A stretch of DNA of 64,000 nucleotides from Baekduia alba (GTDB lineage: Bacteria; Actinomycetota; Thermoleophilia; Solirubrobacterales; Solirubrobacteraceae): contig NZ_CP114013.1 of NCBI RefSeq assembly GCF_028416635.1, positions 4,712,001 to 4,776,000 on the forward strand, given 5' to 3'. Position 1 is the stretch's first letter. Each line of letters starts with the position of its first letter. Positions 11,663-49,767 of the stretch are shown one piece after another. Position numbers and translations under genes: made by a program. The notes under the pieces were generated by a model, which saw only the letters and a list, made by a program, of their open reading frames with translations, had not been told where the DNA came from and made no database searches.

Positions 11663-14016
11663 GCGTCGACCTCGATGGCCGCCTTGTCGCCGCGGCGCGG
11701 CAGCGGCGGGAGCTCGACCGGCGAGGCGTGCATCGCGCGGAGGCGGACGTCGCGCCAGGACACGCCTTCCTTCAACAGCGCCGGGGCGCCCATGACGAAC
11801 GCGGTCGCGATCTCGACGGCCTGCAGGATGATCCCGTAGCCCAGCGCGTCCTCGACGCTGATCCCGTAGCCCTTGTGCAGCACGAACACGCACGCGGCCT
11901 GGAAGACGCCGAGGTTCGACGGCGTGGCCGGCAGCACGGCGCTCACGTTCACGGCGAACAGGACCGCCGCCGCGGCGCCGACGCCCGCGCGGTCGTCCAG
12001 CCCGAACGCGACCAGCAGCACGTAGCAGGACATCCACTGGATGACCCACGCCAGCAGCTGCGCGCTCACAGCGGCGGCGCCCAGCTTCGGATGCCGGAAG
12101 ACCTCGAGCCCGGCGCGGACCTGCGCGGTCGCCCGCCGGGCCTGACGCGACCACGCGCGCACCCGCGCGCTGCGTGACCAGCCGCGATCCCGCAGCAGCG
12201 CCGGCGCACCCAGCACGGCACCGAGGATCACCAGCGGCAGCGCCGCGAACGCGATCAGCCCGCTCTCGTGGTGATGGAACACCGGGACCGAGCGGAACAT
12301 GACCGCGCCCAGGATGGCCAGGGCCAAGATGTTCAACAACGTCTGGGAGACGATCGTCCCGAGCACGACCGGGACGCCGTCGCGCGGGCGCCCGATCCGG
12401 CGCGCCACGATCATCGCGCGCGCCGGCTCGCCCAGGCGCGCCGGCAGCGTCGCGGACATCAGCACGCCGATCATCGTCCCTTGCAGGGCGTCGCGCAGCC
12501 GCGGCCGCGGGGCCGTGGGCATCGCGGCGCGCAGGATCGCGGTCCACGCGACCGCGCGCACGACCATCGAGGCGCACATCAGACCGAGCGCGACGATCAC
12601 CCACGGCGGCGTCGCGTGCACGAGCGAATGGCCGATCCGGTCGAAGCCGATCCGCTCCAGCGCGACGACCGACCCGGCCACGATCGCGAGCGCGACCAGC
12701 GCCAGCAGCGCACGGCGAACGAACGCGAGCACCGGCCGGCGCGCGCCGCCGGAGCGCGGCCTCGGCGTCTCCATCGACGGCAGGCGGCGGGCGGGACGGC
12801 GCGGCAGCAGGTCGGCCGGCAGCGCGCCGACCCGGACCGCCGCGCGCTGGACGCGCGAGCCCTCGGGCGCCCCTACGGCGACCGCGTCCTCGTACGCCTT
12901 CAAGACCTCGGCCGCGACGACCGGCCACGCGTAGCGCTTCGCGCTCTCCAGCGCGGCGGCGCCCAGCGCGGCCCGGCGCTCGTGGTCCAGCGCGAGCGCG
13001 CGCAGCGTGTCGCCCAGCGCGGCGGCGTCGCCGCGCGGCACGAGCAGGCCGTCGACGCCGTCGCGCACGACGTCGCGGTAGCCGGCGATGTCGGACGCCA
13101 CGACCGGCGTGCCGGCCGCGAACGCCTCCGTCAAGACCATGCCGAACGACTCGCCGCCCAGCGACGGGGCGGCCAGCACGTCGGCGTCGCGCAGGACCGC
13201 GACCTTCTCCGCGTCGTCGACCTTGCCGAGCACCGTGACGCCGGTGTCGCCGTCGAGCAGCAGCGGCTGCACCTCTTCGGGCGTCGCGCCCACGATCCGC
13301 AGCTCGGCGGGCACGTGCTCGCGCAGCGCCTCGAAGGCGCGCAGCAGCACCGGCAGCCCCTTGCGCTCGACCGCCTGGCCGACGAACGCGATCCGCAGCG
13401 GACGCTCGGCGCTCACCGGCTCGGCCGGAGCGGCCGTCAGCGACGGATCGACCGCGACCCCGTTCGGGATGACGCGGTAGCGGCCGCCGTAGAAGCGCTC
13501 GCCCGTCCAGGCGGCGGCGTCGGACACCGCGATCCGGACCTTCAGCCGGTTCAGCCGGCGCCGGGCGCCGATCGCGACCGCGATGCCGTTGGAGACCGCG
13601 TTGGTCGAGTAGCAGTGGAACGTGCCGACGATCGGCACGCCGCAGGACATCAGCGTGTCCCAGCCGACGCACGGGACGACCGGCTCGTGCAGGTGGACGA
13701 CGTCGTAGCCGCCGGTCCGCAGCTCCTCGCGCAGCGCGCTCACGTTCGGCGCGTAGGGCATCGTCAGGTTGGAGACCGCGCCGTTGGCCGGGAAGCCCAT
13801 CGTGCGCCCGAGCGGGACCAGCCAGTCCGGCAGCTCGCGCTCCTGCGGAACGGCACCGCGATGCCGCCGCGCCGACCACTTGTCGGGCGGATCGACGGGT
13901 GCGAGGACTCGCACATCGTGACCGAGCGCGGCGAGCTCCTGCCGCAGTGCCTCGATGTGCCGCGTCACACCCCCGGGGTACGTCCAGGAATACGGGGAAA
14001 GAAGCGCGATGCGCAT
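11659..14016 (-). CDS. GT4 glycosyltransferase fused to LPG-synthase/AglD-like flippase-type membrane domain
   Basis: A 785-residue bifunctional protein. Residues 1-375 form a GT-B glycosyltransferase of family GT4: it begins MRIALLSPYSWTYPGG, and GESFGMVLTEAFAAGTPVV carries the ExxxxxxE-type nucleotide-sugar motif. A basic Pro/Arg linker (about 385-420) leads to a C-terminal membrane region (about 425-765) with 7-8 helices of the UPF0104/LPG_synthase_TM family, including RLGEPARAMI and LPATPSNLGVFQAA. The fusion suggests a sugar is added to a lipid carrier and the product handled or moved in the membrane. ATG 14016 is the family start. The DUF4333 gene is coupled downstream. Confidence 0.85.
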   Translation of the reverse strand: MRIALLSPYSWTYPGGVTRHIEALRQELAALGHDVRVLAPVDPPDKWSARRHRGAVPQERELPDWLVPLGRTMGFPANGAVSNLTMPYAPNVSALREELRTGGYDVVHLHEPVVPCVGWDTLMSCGVPIVGTFHCYSTNAVSNGIAVAIGARRRLNRLKVRIAVSDAAAWTGERFYGGRYRVIPNGVAVDPSLTAAPAEPVSAERPLRIAFVGQAVERKGLPVLLRAFEALREHVPAELRIVGATPEEVQPLLLDGDTGVTVLGKVDDAEKVAVLRDADVLAAPSLGGESFGMVLTEAFAAGTPVVASDIAGYRDVVRDGVDGLLVPRGDAAALGDTLRALALDHERRAALGAAALESAKRYAWPVVAAEVLKAYEDAVAVGAPEGSRVQRAAVRVGALPADLLPRRPARRLPSMETPRPRSGGARRPVLAFVRRALLALVALAIVAGSVVALERIGFDRIGHSLVHATPPWVIVALGLMCASMVVRAVAWTAILRAAMPTAPRPRLRDALQGTMIGVLMSATLPARLGEPARAMIVARRIGRPRDGVPVVLGTIVSQTLLNILALAILGAVMFRSVPVFHHHESGLIAFAALPLVILGAVLGAPALLRDRGWSRSARVRAWSRQARRATAQVRAGLEVFRHPKLGAAAVSAQLLAWVIQWMSCYVLLVAFGLDDRAGVGAAAAVLFAVNVSAVLPATPSNLGVFQAACVFVLHKGYGISVEDALGYGIILQAVEIATAFVMGAPALLKEGVSWRDVRLRAMHASPVELPPLPRRGDKAAIEVDA

Positions 14017-26471: not shown

Positions 26472-26705
26472 CTACCAGCGCTTCTTCTTGCGCTTCATGA
26501 GCCCGCCGATGGCGGCGATGCCGCCGCCGATGACGAACCCGGCCACGGCCGCGCCGATGAGCACCTGCTGCTGGTGCTCGCGGATCTGCTTGCGCCAGTC
26601 GGTGACCTCGGCGACCTCTCCGCGCAGCCGCTCGAGCGACACGGCCAGCTCGGCGCGGTTGCTCTCGATCGACGCCCGGATTTCCTCAGGAGAACGCTGG
26701 GGCAT
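26472..26705 (-). CDS. DUF3618 small membrane protein
   Basis: A 77-residue protein: a charged amphipathic N-terminal half (RSPEEIRASIESNRAEL) then one membrane helix (about 48-68) and a basic end GLMKRKKKRW. DUF3618 proteins accompany holin-like proteins in Actinobacteria; function unknown. Its ATG at 26705 overlaps the stop of a 17-codon micro-ORF (TGATG), and GAGG eight bases upstream is a usable ribosome-binding site. The first nine codons are the same as in the three micro-ORFs upstream. Confidence 0.85.
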   Translation of the reverse strand: MPQRSPEEIRASIESNRAELAVSLERLRGEVAEVTDWRKQIREHQQQVLIGAAVAGFVIGGGIAAIGGLMKRKKKRW

Positions 26706-26758
26706 CAGTTGACCTCGGTGAGGAATTCCGCGATTTCCTCAGGAGAACGCTGGGGCAT
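26705..26758 (-). CDS. 17-codon micro-ORF, third in the chain
   Basis: Encodes MPQRSPEEIAEFLTEVN. The stop TGA overlaps the ATG of the DUF3618 gene (TGATG) and its own ATG overlaps the previous micro-ORF stop. GAGG precedes the start by seven bases. The first nine residues equal those of the DUF3618 protein. Whether the peptide matters or only the coupled translation is unknown. Confidence 0.5.
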   Translation of the reverse strand: MPQRSPEEIAEFLTEVN

Positions 26759-26811
26759 CAGTTGACCTCGGTGAGGAATTCCGCGATTTCCTCAGGAGAA
26801 CGCTGGGGCAT
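26758..26811 (-). CDS. 17-codon micro-ORF, second in the chain
   Basis: Same 17 codons as its two neighbours, MPQRSPEEIAEFLTEVN, with TGATG overlaps at both ends and its own GAGG site. Part of the 53-bp tandem array. Confidence 0.5.
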   Translation of the reverse strand: MPQRSPEEIAEFLTEVN

Positions 26812-26864
26812 CAGTTGACCTCGGTGAGGAATTCCGCGATTTCCTCAGGAGAACGCTGGGGCAT
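26811..26864 (-). CDS. 17-codon micro-ORF, first in the chain
   Basis: Same peptide as the next two. Its ATG follows immediately after the TAG of the holin-like gene (TAGATG), so ribosomes finishing that gene could restart here. It lacks the repeat-borne GAGG, using instead the GGAG in the 3' end of the holin-like gene. Confidence 0.5.
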   Translation of the reverse strand: MPQRSPEEIAEFLTEVN

Positions 26865-27287
26865 CTAGATCGTCGTCTCCGGGTGGTCGGCCGAAACCGT
26901 GTCCTTGATCAGCTTGGCCTCCTCGATGGCCATCGTCGGCGCCGGCGGCGAGCCGGCCTTCAGGGCGCGGAACGCGATGTAGCCGGCGAGCGCGGCGAGG
27001 AGGAGCAGCACGGCCGCGACCGTGAAGAACCCCCAGAACGGCTGGCCGTCCGGGAACGGGATCGCCCAGTACGCGAGGTACGCGAACCCGAACAGGATCA
27101 TGATCAGCGCGCCCAGGACGAAGCTGCCGGCGGCCGCGGCGACGGCCGCGCCCTTGCCGAGCTTGGCGACCTTCTGCGTGACCTCGACCTTGGCGAGCTC
27201 GATCTCCTCGCGAACCAGGAGCTGGGCCTTCTCGCTGACCTCCTGGATCGCCTGGGCGATGCTCGCCGGCTGCTGCTGATCGCTCAC
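26865..27287 (-). CDS. phage-holin-like membrane protein (DUF1469/holin superfamily III type)
   Basis: A 140-residue membrane protein: an amphipathic N-terminus (IQEVSEKAQLLVREEIELA), then two helices (about 48-72 and 84-108), then a polar tail. It matches Actinobacterial holin_3_6-type proteins, which are chromosomal and not prophage-linked. There is no endolysin or phage gene nearby. GTG start overlaps the previous stop (GTGA). It is followed without a gap by the micro-ORF chain. Confidence 0.8.
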   Translation of the reverse strand: MSDQQQPASIAQAIQEVSEKAQLLVREEIELAKVEVTQKVAKLGKGAAVAAAAGSFVLGALIMILFGFAYLAYWAIPFPDGQPFWGFFTVAAVLLLLAALAGYIAFRALKAGSPPAPTMAIEEAKLIKDTVSADHPETTI

Positions 27288-40432: not shown

Positions 40433-41783
40433 CGGCGTGCTTCTTGGCCGCGGACTTCCTCGCCGCGGCCTTCTTCTTGGCGGCGGACTTCTTCGCCTTG
40501 ACGCTGGCGGACTTCGCCTTGGGCTTGGACTTCCTGTGCGTCACGGGGCGCTTGACCGGCGGCTTGGTCGTCGACGTCGGCGTCGTGGGCTTGGTCGTGA
40601 CGGGCGGCGTCGTCGGGGTCGGCGTCGGCTTCGGCGCAGGCGTGGGGGTCGGCGTCGGCGTCGGCGTGGGAGTCGGCGTCGGCGTCGGCGTGGGAGTCGG
40701 CGTCGGCGTCGGCGTGACCGGGGCCGCCGGGGTGGCACTCGCCAGCGAGCTCGGCGTCTCGGCGGCCAGGCCGGCCGGCGCGGCGCTCGCGCTCAGCGCC
40801 GACAGGCACGGGCTGCCCGATGCGAGGCGGAAGTCCGTGCTGGCCCGGTTGACGAACTTCGGGTCGCCGCTGACGTTGCTGCCCATCGTGAAGCCGCCGC
40901 CGCTCGTGTCGTAGGCGCCCTTGGCGGCCGACCCGATGCAGTTGTTGCGGACGACGTTGTTGGTGCCGACGGGGTTGCCGGCCGGGTACCACGACTCGAC
41001 GTTGGTGCGGATCGTCGAGTCCGAGATGATGTTGTTCTCGACGATGCTGTTGCTCGACGCGGTGCCGCCGTCGCCGGAGAAGATGACGCCCTCGCCGTTG
41101 CCGGTGATGATGTTGCCGCGCACGACCGTGCCCTGGGCGTTGGGGTACAGCTGCACGCCGCGGTCGGCGTTGTTGTAGATGACGTTGTCGAGGATCTGCG
41201 TGTTGTCGGCCGCCACGACGTAGATGCCGTGGTTGCGGTTCGTGCCCGGGCCGCCGCAGTCGTGGATGCGGTTGCCGCGGATGACCGTGCCGGCGGCGCG
41301 GCCCCAGCCGTCGTCGTTGCCGATGTTGAAGCAGATGACCGTGTGCTCGTTGCTGACGTCGTTGCCGACGAACGTGTCGTTGTTGCCGTTGACCGTCGGC
41401 GAGGGCAGCCCGGAGCTGTTGGCGCCGTCGAGCAGGAGGTTCGAGACCGTCACGCGGTCGGCGCCCTGCTTGATCCAGAAGCGGCCGACGACCTTGGCCT
41501 TCTCGCCGGGGTAGGACGTGAGCGTGATCTGCGCACGCGACACCGCGACGTTCTGGCCGTAGGTGCCGGCGCGCAGGCAGCCGGTCTGACCGGGCGCGAG
41601 CGTGTCGGCGAGCTTCTGCGCGGAGCGCAGCGGCGCGGCGACGGTCCCAGCCGCGGCGTCGTTGCCGGTGGTCGACGCGACCTTGTCGCAGGTGGTTGCG
41701 GCCTGGGCGGGCGAGCCCGCAGCAAGCGCCAGTACTGAGCTGCCGATAACGACGGCGAGCGTGGGAACGGTGGGGAGACGCAC
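40422..41783 (-). CDS. secreted right-handed beta-helix protein with Thr-Pro linker and Lys/Ala-rich tail
   Basis: A 453-residue exported protein. Signal peptide (about 1-28, ending SPAQAA), then a parallel beta-helix (about 35-340) with Asn-ladder turns such as GVQLYPNAQGTVVRGNIITG and GEGVIFSGDGGT, as in pectate-lyase-like and alginate-epimerase-like proteins. Then a (Thr-Pro)n linker and a strongly basic tail (KSAAKKKAAARKSAAKKHAA). The tail could bind acidic polysaccharide or cell wall. GTG 41783 has AAAGG upstream. A c-di-GMP-I riboswitch precedes it. A paralogue lies at 51.7 kb. Confidence 0.85.
   Translation of the reverse strand: MRLPTVPTLAVVIGSSVLALAAGSPAQAATTCDKVASTTGNDAAAGTVAAPLRSAQKLADTLAPGQTGCLRAGTYGQNVAVSRAQITLTSYPGEKAKVVGRFWIKQGADRVTVSNLLLDGANSSGLPSPTVNGNNDTFVGNDVSNEHTVICFNIGNDDGWGRAAGTVIRGNRIHDCGGPGTNRNHGIYVVAADNTQILDNVIYNNADRGVQLYPNAQGTVVRGNIITGNGEGVIFSGDGGTASSNSIVENNIISDSTIRTNVESWYPAGNPVGTNNVVRNNCIGSAAKGAYDTSGGGFTMGSNVSGDPKFVNRASTDFRLASGSPCLSALSASAAPAGLAAETPSSLASATPAAPVTPTPTPTPTPTPTPTPTPTPTPTPTPAPKPTPTPTTPPVTTKPTTPTSTTKPPVKRPVTHRKSKPKAKSASVKAKKSAAKKKAAARKSAAKKHAARR
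40642..40713. repeat. 24-bp in-frame tandem repeat (three copies) encoding Thr-Pro
   Basis: Three near-identical 24-bp units (GTGGGAGTCGGCGTCGGCGT-like) code for the Thr-Pro linker. The unit is a multiple of three, so copy changes alter linker length without a frameshift. Confidence 0.75.
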
Positions 41784-48540: not shown

Positions 48541-49686
48541 GTGCGCCTCGCCGTCTACACCGACTACACCTACATGCAGGACGCCGAGGGCGTCACCGGC
48601 GAGCGCGCGTTCGTGCGGTTCATGGTGGCCTTGGCCCCTGAGGTCGAGCACCTGACGCTGGTCGGCCGCCTCCGGCCCGAGCCGGGCCGCTCGCACTACG
48701 CGCTGCCGCCCGACGTCGGCTTCGTCGGCCTGCCGTTCTACTCCAGCCTCACGCGTCCCTTCGCCGTGATCGGCTCGCTCGGCCGCTCGGCGGTGCGCTT
48801 CTGGCGGATGCTCGACGACGTCGACACCGTGTGGCTCATGGGGCCCTACGTCCACGCGGTCGCGTTCGCGCTGCTCGCCGCCGCGCGCGGCAAGCGCGTG
48901 TACCTGGGCGTGCGCCAGGACTACCCCGTCTACGTGCACAGCCGGCACCCGGACCGACGCTGGATCCACGCGGCGGCGACGGTGCTCGAGCGCACCTTCC
49001 AGACCATGGCGCGGCGCTGGCCGGTCGCCGTCGTCGGCCCGGACCTGGCCCGCAACTACCACCGGGCCAAGCGCGTGCTCACGCTCACGGTGTCGCTCGT
49101 ATCCGACGCCGACCTGGTCGCCGCCGACGCCGCGGTGGCGCGCACGCCCGCGACGCCGATGCGCGTGCTGACCGTGGGGCGCCTGGACCGGGAGAAGAAC
49201 CCGCTCCTGCTCGCCGACGCGATCGCCGGGCTGCGGGCGCGCGGCGTCGACGCGCGCCTCGACGTCGTCGGCGACGGGCCGCAGCGCGACGCGCTGGCCG
49301 CGCGCGTCGCCGAGCTCGGGATCGACGACGCCGTCGCCCTGCTCGGCTACGTGCCGATCGACGGCGGCCTGCTGGAGCTGTACCGCGGCGCCGACGTGTT
49401 CCTGCACGTCTCGTGGACCGAAGGCCTCCCCCAGGTCCTGTTCGAGGCGTTCGCCGCCGGGATCCCGGTCGTCGCGACCGACGTGGGCGGCGTGGCCGCG
49501 GCCGTCGGCGACGCGGCGCTGCTCGTCCCGGCCGGCGACGGCGACGCCGCCGCCGACGCGGTCCGCCGCGTCCGCGAGGAGCCCGGGCTGCGCGAGCGCC
49601 TCATCCGCGCCGGCGCCGCGCGGGTGCGCGAGCACACCATGGAGCACGAGGCCCAGTCGCTGGCCCGGTTCCTGGCCGAGGACTAG
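48541..49686 (+). CDS. GT4 family glycosyltransferase
   Basis: A 381-residue GT-B enzyme. It begins MRLAVYTDYTYMQDAEGV; RVLTVGRLDREKNPLLLADA and EGLPQVLFEAFAAGIPVVA form the nucleotide-sugar site. Follows the GT2 gene at once, so the two transferases act in one assembly line. GTG 48541. It ends GAGGACTAG, which is the start of a 45-bp duplication. Confidence 0.88.
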   Translation: MRLAVYTDYTYMQDAEGVTGERAFVRFMVALAPEVEHLTLVGRLRPEPGRSHYALPPDVGFVGLPFYSSLTRPFAVIGSLGRSAVRFWRMLDDVDTVWLMGPYVHAVAFALLAAARGKRVYLGVRQDYPVYVHSRHPDRRWIHAAATVLERTFQTMARRWPVAVVGPDLARNYHRAKRVLTLTVSLVSDADLVAADAAVARTPATPMRVLTVGRLDREKNPLLLADAIAGLRARGVDARLDVVGDGPQRDALAARVAELGIDDAVALLGYVPIDGGLLELYRGADVFLHVSWTEGLPQVLFEAFAAGIPVVATDVGGVAAAVGDAALLVPAGDGDAAADAVRRVREEPGLRERLIRAGAARVREHTMEHEAQSLARFLAED

Positions 49687-49767
49687 TAGGGCGCTACCCG
49701 CGCGCCGCGCTGCGCGCGGCCCGAGGACTACTAGGGCCCTACCCGCTCGCCGCGCTGCGCGCGGCGA
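49678..49767. repeat. 45-bp tandem duplication between convergent genes
   Basis: Units at 49678-49722 and 49723-49767 share GAGGACTA, AGGGC, CTACCCG and CGCCGCGCTGCGCGCGGC with about four differences. In the first, CCGCGCGC-CGCGCT-GCGCGCGG is a perfect 8-bp stem. The left unit starts in the last codons of the GT4 gene and the right unit covers the last codons of the convergent hydrolase gene. It may act as a two-sided terminator. Confidence 0.75.

What the first reader, a model, noticed from the sequence alone, without database searches (positions are those of the whole stretch)
26679..26865. Three identical stop-start-coupled 17-codon micro-ORFs made by a 53-bp tandem repeat
Seen: on the minus strand each 53-bp unit gives GAGG, ATG and the peptide MPQRSPEEIAEFLTEVN, with each TGA overlapping the next ATG, ending on the ATG of the DUF3618 gene. 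The first nine codons equal those of DUF3618. Because 53 is not a multiple of 3, every unit moves the frame, yet the TGATG joins make each unit a closed ORF. Inference: a translational relay or counter that sets DUF3618 output by repeat number, or a fresh slippage product.
Basis: partly seen in the sequence, partly recalled or inferred. Interest (0 to 1): 0.8.

Follow-up and report, generated by a model that had tools for sequence, protein, structure and literature searches.

The report
MIRU-like micro-ORF repeat at gene junction
Between two tightly coupled genes of an actinobacterium sits a fresh threefold 53-bp repeat whose copies are tiny genes chained stop-to-start, one of at least ten arrays of about 55 bp in this genome, mostly at gene ends, resembling the variable repeats (MIRU/VNTR) used to type tuberculosis strains.

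Summary
Window 26679-26865 (minus strand) holds 3.5 perfect copies of a 53-bp unit. Each whole copy is a 17-codon ORF (MPQRSPEEIAEFLTEVN) whose TGA shares its A with the next ATG; the last join is the ATG of a DUF3618 gene. The insert is lineage-specific: in all six same-genus genomes the holin-like stop and the DUF3618 start abut or overlap, so 159 bp (3 x 53) entered a coupled junction. It is not a one-off. In 1.66 Mb of this genome, 10 of 12 high-identity arrays with period 40-200 have 53-57-bp units of unrelated sequence, and 9 of 10 touch a predicted gene end (26% expected). One, before rsmI, has the same anatomy: 56-bp units starting with rsmI's own first codons and closing on a GTGA stop-start overlap. 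A congener carries a single homologous unit there. M. tuberculosis MIRU/VNTR loci have similar unit sizes and, for MIRUs, the same coupling. I judge this a recent VNTR of an actinobacterial ~55-bp class that keeps coupling intact and probably changes DUF3618 output little. A repeat counter is possible but unsupported. New variant of a known kind.

The parts
26679..26865 (-). tandem array, 53-bp unit, 3.5 perfect copies
26811..26864 (-). micro-ORF 1, MPQRSPEEIAEFLTEVN*; ATG follows directly on the TAG of the holin-like gene
26758..26811 (-). micro-ORF 2, identical peptide, TGATG joins at both ends, GAGG 7 nt before its ATG
26705..26758 (-). micro-ORF 3, identical peptide, its TGA shares its A with the DUF3618 ATG
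26472..26705 (-). DUF3618 membrane protein gene (77 aa, PF12277), downstream partner; its first 27 nt are copied in every unit
   Evidence: N-terminus MPQRSPEE... shared with same-genus orthologues
26865..27287 (-). holin-X-like gene (PF07332, 140 aa), upstream partner, ends TAG at 26867-26865
26706..26731 (-). unit-specific filler, copy 3 (others at 26759-26784 and 26812-26837); carries the GAGG

Best explanation
The array is a recent, lineage-specific minisatellite (VNTR) of an actinobacterial class with ~53-57-bp units that forms mostly at gene ends. It sits exactly in the stop-start junction of a coupled holin-like/DUF3618 gene pair. Shown: position, perfect identity, absence in relatives, genome-wide size class, second example at rsmI. 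Inferred: one unit containing a copy of the DUF3618 start arose first and was then amplified by slippage or unequal recombination on the 27-28-nt direct repeat. Inferred: alleles survive when the unit is 3n+2 long and ends in a stop-start overlap with an SD, because ribosomes leaving the holin-like gene can reinitiate at each micro-ORF and reach DUF3618, or initiate there on its own GAGG. The peptide is thus a by-product of keeping coupling, and the effect on DUF3618 output is probably small.
For: Perfect copies. No repeat at this junction in the 25 relatives whose junction was printed, among them all six congeners; the junction is TAGATG in the closest relative and TGATG in four other congeners. 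Filler not found in the 398 other genomes of the class searched (up to 3 mismatches), IMG/VR or phages; plasmids gave only one chance-level partial hit. Size class: 10 of 12 arrays (>=90% match, period 40-200) are 53-57 bp (p<1e-7 against a uniform spread); 9 of 10 lie within 30 bp of a predicted gene end versus 26% of random segments (p=4e-5). Second case: 56-bp units before rsmI, VTGRLVVCPTLGVGAEVAS with GTGA joins, and a single homologous unit in congener G003, MSGRLVVCPTLGVGAERSA with an ATGA join. Block-shuffled sequence gives no such structure. Literature: 11 of 15 M. tuberculosis typing loci have 51-59-bp units (PMC3004912); MIRU ORFs couple at start codons (PMC12548453).
Against: The source of the 26-nt filler is not found: it does not resemble the holin-like gene's end (p 0.15 ungapped, 0.69 gapped), and similarity to the DUF3618 interior or a fold-back copy is marginal (p 0.01 for the DUF3618 sense strand, 0.08 for the locus on both strands). 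So the first step is unexplained. Closest relative G006 (0.4 Mb) and G053 (0.4 Mb) show no ~55-bp arrays and G001 only one, so the class is not uniform in the group. The rsmI unit shared by G000 and G003 could mean that some units are kept by selection. No expression data.
Confidence: 0.7

Rival explanations
1. A selected translational relay or rheostat: repeat number tunes DUF3618 (and, at the other locus, RsmI) output because each extra stop-start join changes the fraction of ribosomes that pass, or adds entry sites.
For: Stop-start joins and GAGG at 7-nt spacing in both arrays; unit lengths 53 and 56 are both 3n+2; M. tuberculosis fpg1 mRNA rises with the length of a 55/79-bp array ending at its start codon (PMC2734929).
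Against: SD energy at the DUF3618 start unchanged and accessibility lower than at the empty site; the coupling anatomy follows if only non-disruptive alleles survive; no variant alleles known; the fpg1 effect is on mRNA and modest.
Confidence: 0.13
2. A small mobile element of MIRU type that inserts at stop-start junctions.
For: Same size, same kind of site and same coupling as MIRUs; the rsmI unit is shared between two species but missing in others.
Against: The filler occurs nowhere else in the genome with up to 3 mismatches, whereas MIRUs are scattered at 41 places in M. tuberculosis; the other ~55-bp arrays have unrelated sequences; half of the unit is a copy of the host gene.
Confidence: 0.07
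3. The 17-residue peptide is the product, a functional small protein or decoy of the DUF3618 N-terminus.
For: Closed ORFs with start signals; the rsmI micro-peptides of two species share LGVGAE.
Against: No relative has the DUF3618 micro-ORF; identical copies give no sign of coding constraint; a hydrophilic fragment without a known domain.
Confidence: 0.05
4. An assembly error in copy number.
For: Perfect repeats are prone to it; reads are not available here.
Against: The genome is one 5.86-Mb contig, which implies long reads that would span 187 bp (inference); nine further arrays of the same class were found, and a congener's separate assembly has a related single unit at rsmI.
Confidence: 0.04

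Closest known systems
Mycobacterial interspersed repetitive units (MIRU), e.g. the senX3-regX3 77/53-bp units
   Same: Unit length (53 bp), tandem copies in a junction of co-directional genes, small ORF in each unit coupled by stop-start overlap, presumed minimal effect on the downstream gene
   Different: MIRUs are one dispersed sequence family; here the unit is unique in the genome and its first half copies the downstream gene's own start. MIRUs are described with a -4 overlap; here TGATG shares one base (the rsmI array has the -4 GTGA form)
M. tuberculosis VNTR3239/ETR-F upstream of fpg1
   Same: 55-bp (and 79-bp) units ending at the start codon; non-tuberculosis mycobacteria have only a few bp between the two genes; lineage-specific insertion
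   Different: Starts 40 bp after the rnc stop and is built of several sub-repeats; stop-start micro-ORFs are not described there
M. tuberculosis MIRU-VNTR/ETR/QUB typing loci as a size class
   Same: 11 of 15 listed loci have 51-59-bp units, and 75 and 77 bp also occur; this genome sample has ten arrays of 53-57 bp and one of 77 bp
   Different: Different order and class of the phylum, no shared sequence shown; the typing loci were chosen for typing, so their size distribution may be biased
Termination-reinitiation at overlapping genes (translational coupling)
   Same: TGATG/ATGA overlaps with an SD inside the upstream ORF
   Different: A chain of three identical ORFs between the partners instead of a direct overlap

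Membership tests
MIRU | sequence belongs to a repeat family dispersed over many loci | tested here: not met
   filler unique in the 5.86-Mb genome with up to 3 mismatches; absent from the other 398 class genomes searched
MIRU | located at a junction of co-directional genes at stop/start codons | tested here: met
MIRU | small ORF whose ends overlap the stop/start codons of neighbours | tested here: met
   TGATG at three joins; the first join is adjacent (TAGATG), not overlapping
MIRU | sequence homology to the mycobacterial MIRU consensus | not tested
   no MIRU sequence was compared
VNTR / minisatellite | tandem head-to-tail copies of a unit of tens of bp | tested here: met
VNTR / minisatellite | copy number varies between isolates | not testable with these tools
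   one genome per species is held; between species the count is 3 versus 0; at rsmI it is 3 (first one diverged), 1 or 0
translationally coupled gene chain | stop and start overlap or lie within a few nt, with SD | tested here: met
translationally coupled gene chain | downstream translation depends on upstream translation | not testable with these tools
   needs reporters or ribosome profiling

The most novel reading that the evidence does not exclude
Actinomycetota share an uncharacterised process with a nearly fixed step of about 55 bp that creates tandem arrays at gene ends. Where the ends are coupled genes, it yields chains of micro-ORFs copying the downstream gene's first codons, which act as an adjustable translational relay for proteins such as DUF3618 and RsmI.
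Probability: 0.15. Interest if true: 0.8.

Novelty: new variant of a known kind. Interest (0 to 1): 0.5.

Why it matters
MIRU/VNTR repeats are used worldwide to type tuberculosis strains, yet the origin of their ~53-58-bp size and their effect on genes are not settled. A bacterium from another class of the phylum with arrays of the same size at gene ends, built from host-gene starts rather than from a dispersed element, suggests a shared generating process. It also offers a presumably harmless system in which both origin and effect can be tested.

Tried and rejected
Filler copied from elsewhere in the genome: no copy with up to 3 mismatches. From phage, plasmid or viral contigs: no exact match in IMG/VR and no phage match; the one plasmid hit (Methylobacterium, E 0.5) is chance level. 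Filler as a duplicate of the holin-like gene's end: not supported for the window, though the G003 rsmI filler does resemble its own upstream gene's end (16/24, p 0.0013, uncorrected) and the L082:17775 array's filler matches the native upstream region. Filler from the DUF3618 interior (CCGAGGTCA) or as an inverted copy of TGAGGAAATC: similarity seen but p 0.01-0.08. Structured RNA: Rfam gives nothing credible; fold z-score -1.9, with repeats pairing with each other in the predicted structure. Promoter or terminator in the array: none found by consensus. Single-unit forms at the same spacing as a large hidden class: not seen, only a few exact repeats of 16-20 bp lie near 55. Ancestral states for arrays L102 and L141 could not be read because loci were no longer cut out.

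Full report
Observation. The minus strand of window 26679-26865 carries 3.5 perfect copies of a 53-bp unit. Each whole copy is an ORF ATG-CCC-CAG-CGT-TCT-CCT-GAG-GAA-ATC-GCG-GAA-TTC-CTC-ACC-GAG-GTC-AAC-TGA. Successive ORFs share the A of TGATG, and the last join is the ATG of DUF3618 at 26705 (PF12277). Upstream lies a PF07332 holin-X-like gene ending at 26865. The first ATG lacks the unit's GAGG and follows the upstream TAG directly. And a self-coupling unit must have length 3n+2, so 53 is not paradoxical.

Ancestry. DUF3618 was found in 57 of 61 genomes including its own. At the junction, the closest relative by protein (G006, 95%) reads CTCTAGATGCCTCAG; G001, G002, G003 and G004 read TCTGATG; G005 reads CGGTAGGTG. 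None of the 25 relatives whose junction was printed (all six congeners among them) has a repeat. The event is therefore an insertion of 159 bp, three units, exactly between stop and start. The 26-nt filler is unique in the genome and absent from the 398 other genomes of the class that were searched, from IMG/VR and from the phage collection; plasmids gave one chance-level partial hit.

Wider pattern. I took four stretches of 400 kb from the same genome and ran Tandem Repeats Finder on them and the window (1.664 Mb, 28% of the genome). Of the 12 arrays with at least 90% match and period 40-200, ten have periods of 53, 54, 55, 56 or 57, one has 77 and one 45. The ten units are unrelated in sequence by inspection. 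Nine of the ten lie within 30 bp of a predicted gene end, against 26% of random segments (my own simple codon-usage gene finder). The closest relative G006 and the more distant G053 showed none in 0.4 Mb each; G001 showed one of 53 bp at a gene's 3' end. One Solirubrobacteraceae MAG locus (L052) also has a 55-bp duplication.

Second case of the same anatomy. In front of rsmI (L101: start GTG at 12735; genome position 1072735) stand 56-bp units reading VTGRLVVCPTLGVGAEVAS, with TGA overlapping the next GTG (GTGA), preceded by a longer, diverged first unit. The first ten codons copy those of rsmI, and GAGG sits 7 nt before the start, as in the window. Congener G003 has one unit at the same place, MSGRLVVCPTLGVGAERSA with an ATGA join, while G006, G001 and G005 have none. 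A search for this anatomy finds the window array and the rsmI array in front of real genes, and two further arrays (L102, L136) with coupled or nearly coupled small ORFs. A few isolated weaker matches also appear; block-shuffled sequence gives none.

Origin. At the L082:17775 array the filler is the native upstream sequence (TAGCGTGCCG is conserved in G001 and G003), so the unit is a duplication across the gene start. In G003 the rsmI filler resembles the end of its own upstream gene (16 of 24, p 0.0013, not corrected for the ten comparisons), which fits duplication of a stop-start junction. For the window array the filler does not resemble the holin-like end, and the weak similarities to the DUF3618 interior and to a fold-back of TGAGGAAATC are not convincing. 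The first step is thus unexplained here; amplification on the 27-28-nt direct repeat is the natural second step (inference).

Mechanism. Three of the four starts lie 7 nt after GAGG, with predicted anti-SD pairing of -7.1 kcal/mol, equal to that of the joined empty site (-7.0). SD accessibility is predicted lower with the array (0.50 against 0.82). I therefore expect DUF3618 translation to be preserved, by reinitiation along the chain and by entry at its own GAGG, rather than boosted. Whether output depends on copy number is open.

Known relatives. A 2025 review describes MIRUs as inserting at start codons so that their ORF is coupled to the downstream gene, probably with minimal impact on its expression (PMC12548453). 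The senX3-regX3 MIRUs are 77 and 53 bp (PMC4213456). The fpg1 array of M. tuberculosis has 55- and 79-bp units, ends at the start codon, replaces a junction of a few bp in other mycobacteria, and its length correlates with fpg1 mRNA (PMC2734929). Eleven of 15 listed typing loci have units of 51-59 bp (PMC3004912). The window array works like these, but it is not a MIRU by the test of dispersal.

Verdict. A real, recent, lineage-specific repeat that belongs to a recurring class. The single array is of moderate interest; the shared ~55-bp step and the copying of host-gene starts in coupled junctions are the parts worth following.

Noticed in passing
L101:12560-12765 (own genome ~1072560-1072765): 56-bp array before rsmI with the same micro-ORF anatomy (GTGA joins); a congener (L221:1442-1498) has a single homologous unit
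   Followed up: yes
L082:8813-8961, L082:17775-17908, L092:17307-17423, L102:8647-8833, L124:11745-11871, L136:4866-5051, L138:9735-9875, L141:4988-5173: further tandem arrays of 54-57-bp units with unrelated sequences, mostly at predicted gene ends
   Followed up: partly
L100:9465-9621: 77-bp duplication just after a predicted gene end, with a strong internal inverted repeat; the same length as the long MIRU type
   Followed up: no
L181:9440-9581 (G001): 53-bp array at a gene's 3' end whose unit holds the inverted repeat GACTTCGCC...GGCGAAGTC
   Followed up: no
L052:5782: 55-bp duplication in a Solirubrobacteraceae MAG, apparently inside or near an oxidoreductase-like gene
   Followed up: no
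window 49676-49765: 45-bp duplication across the end of a + strand gene and the end of a - strand gene (convergent pair)
   Followed up: no
window 40603-40716: hexamer-based (GGCGTC) low-complexity array
   Followed up: no
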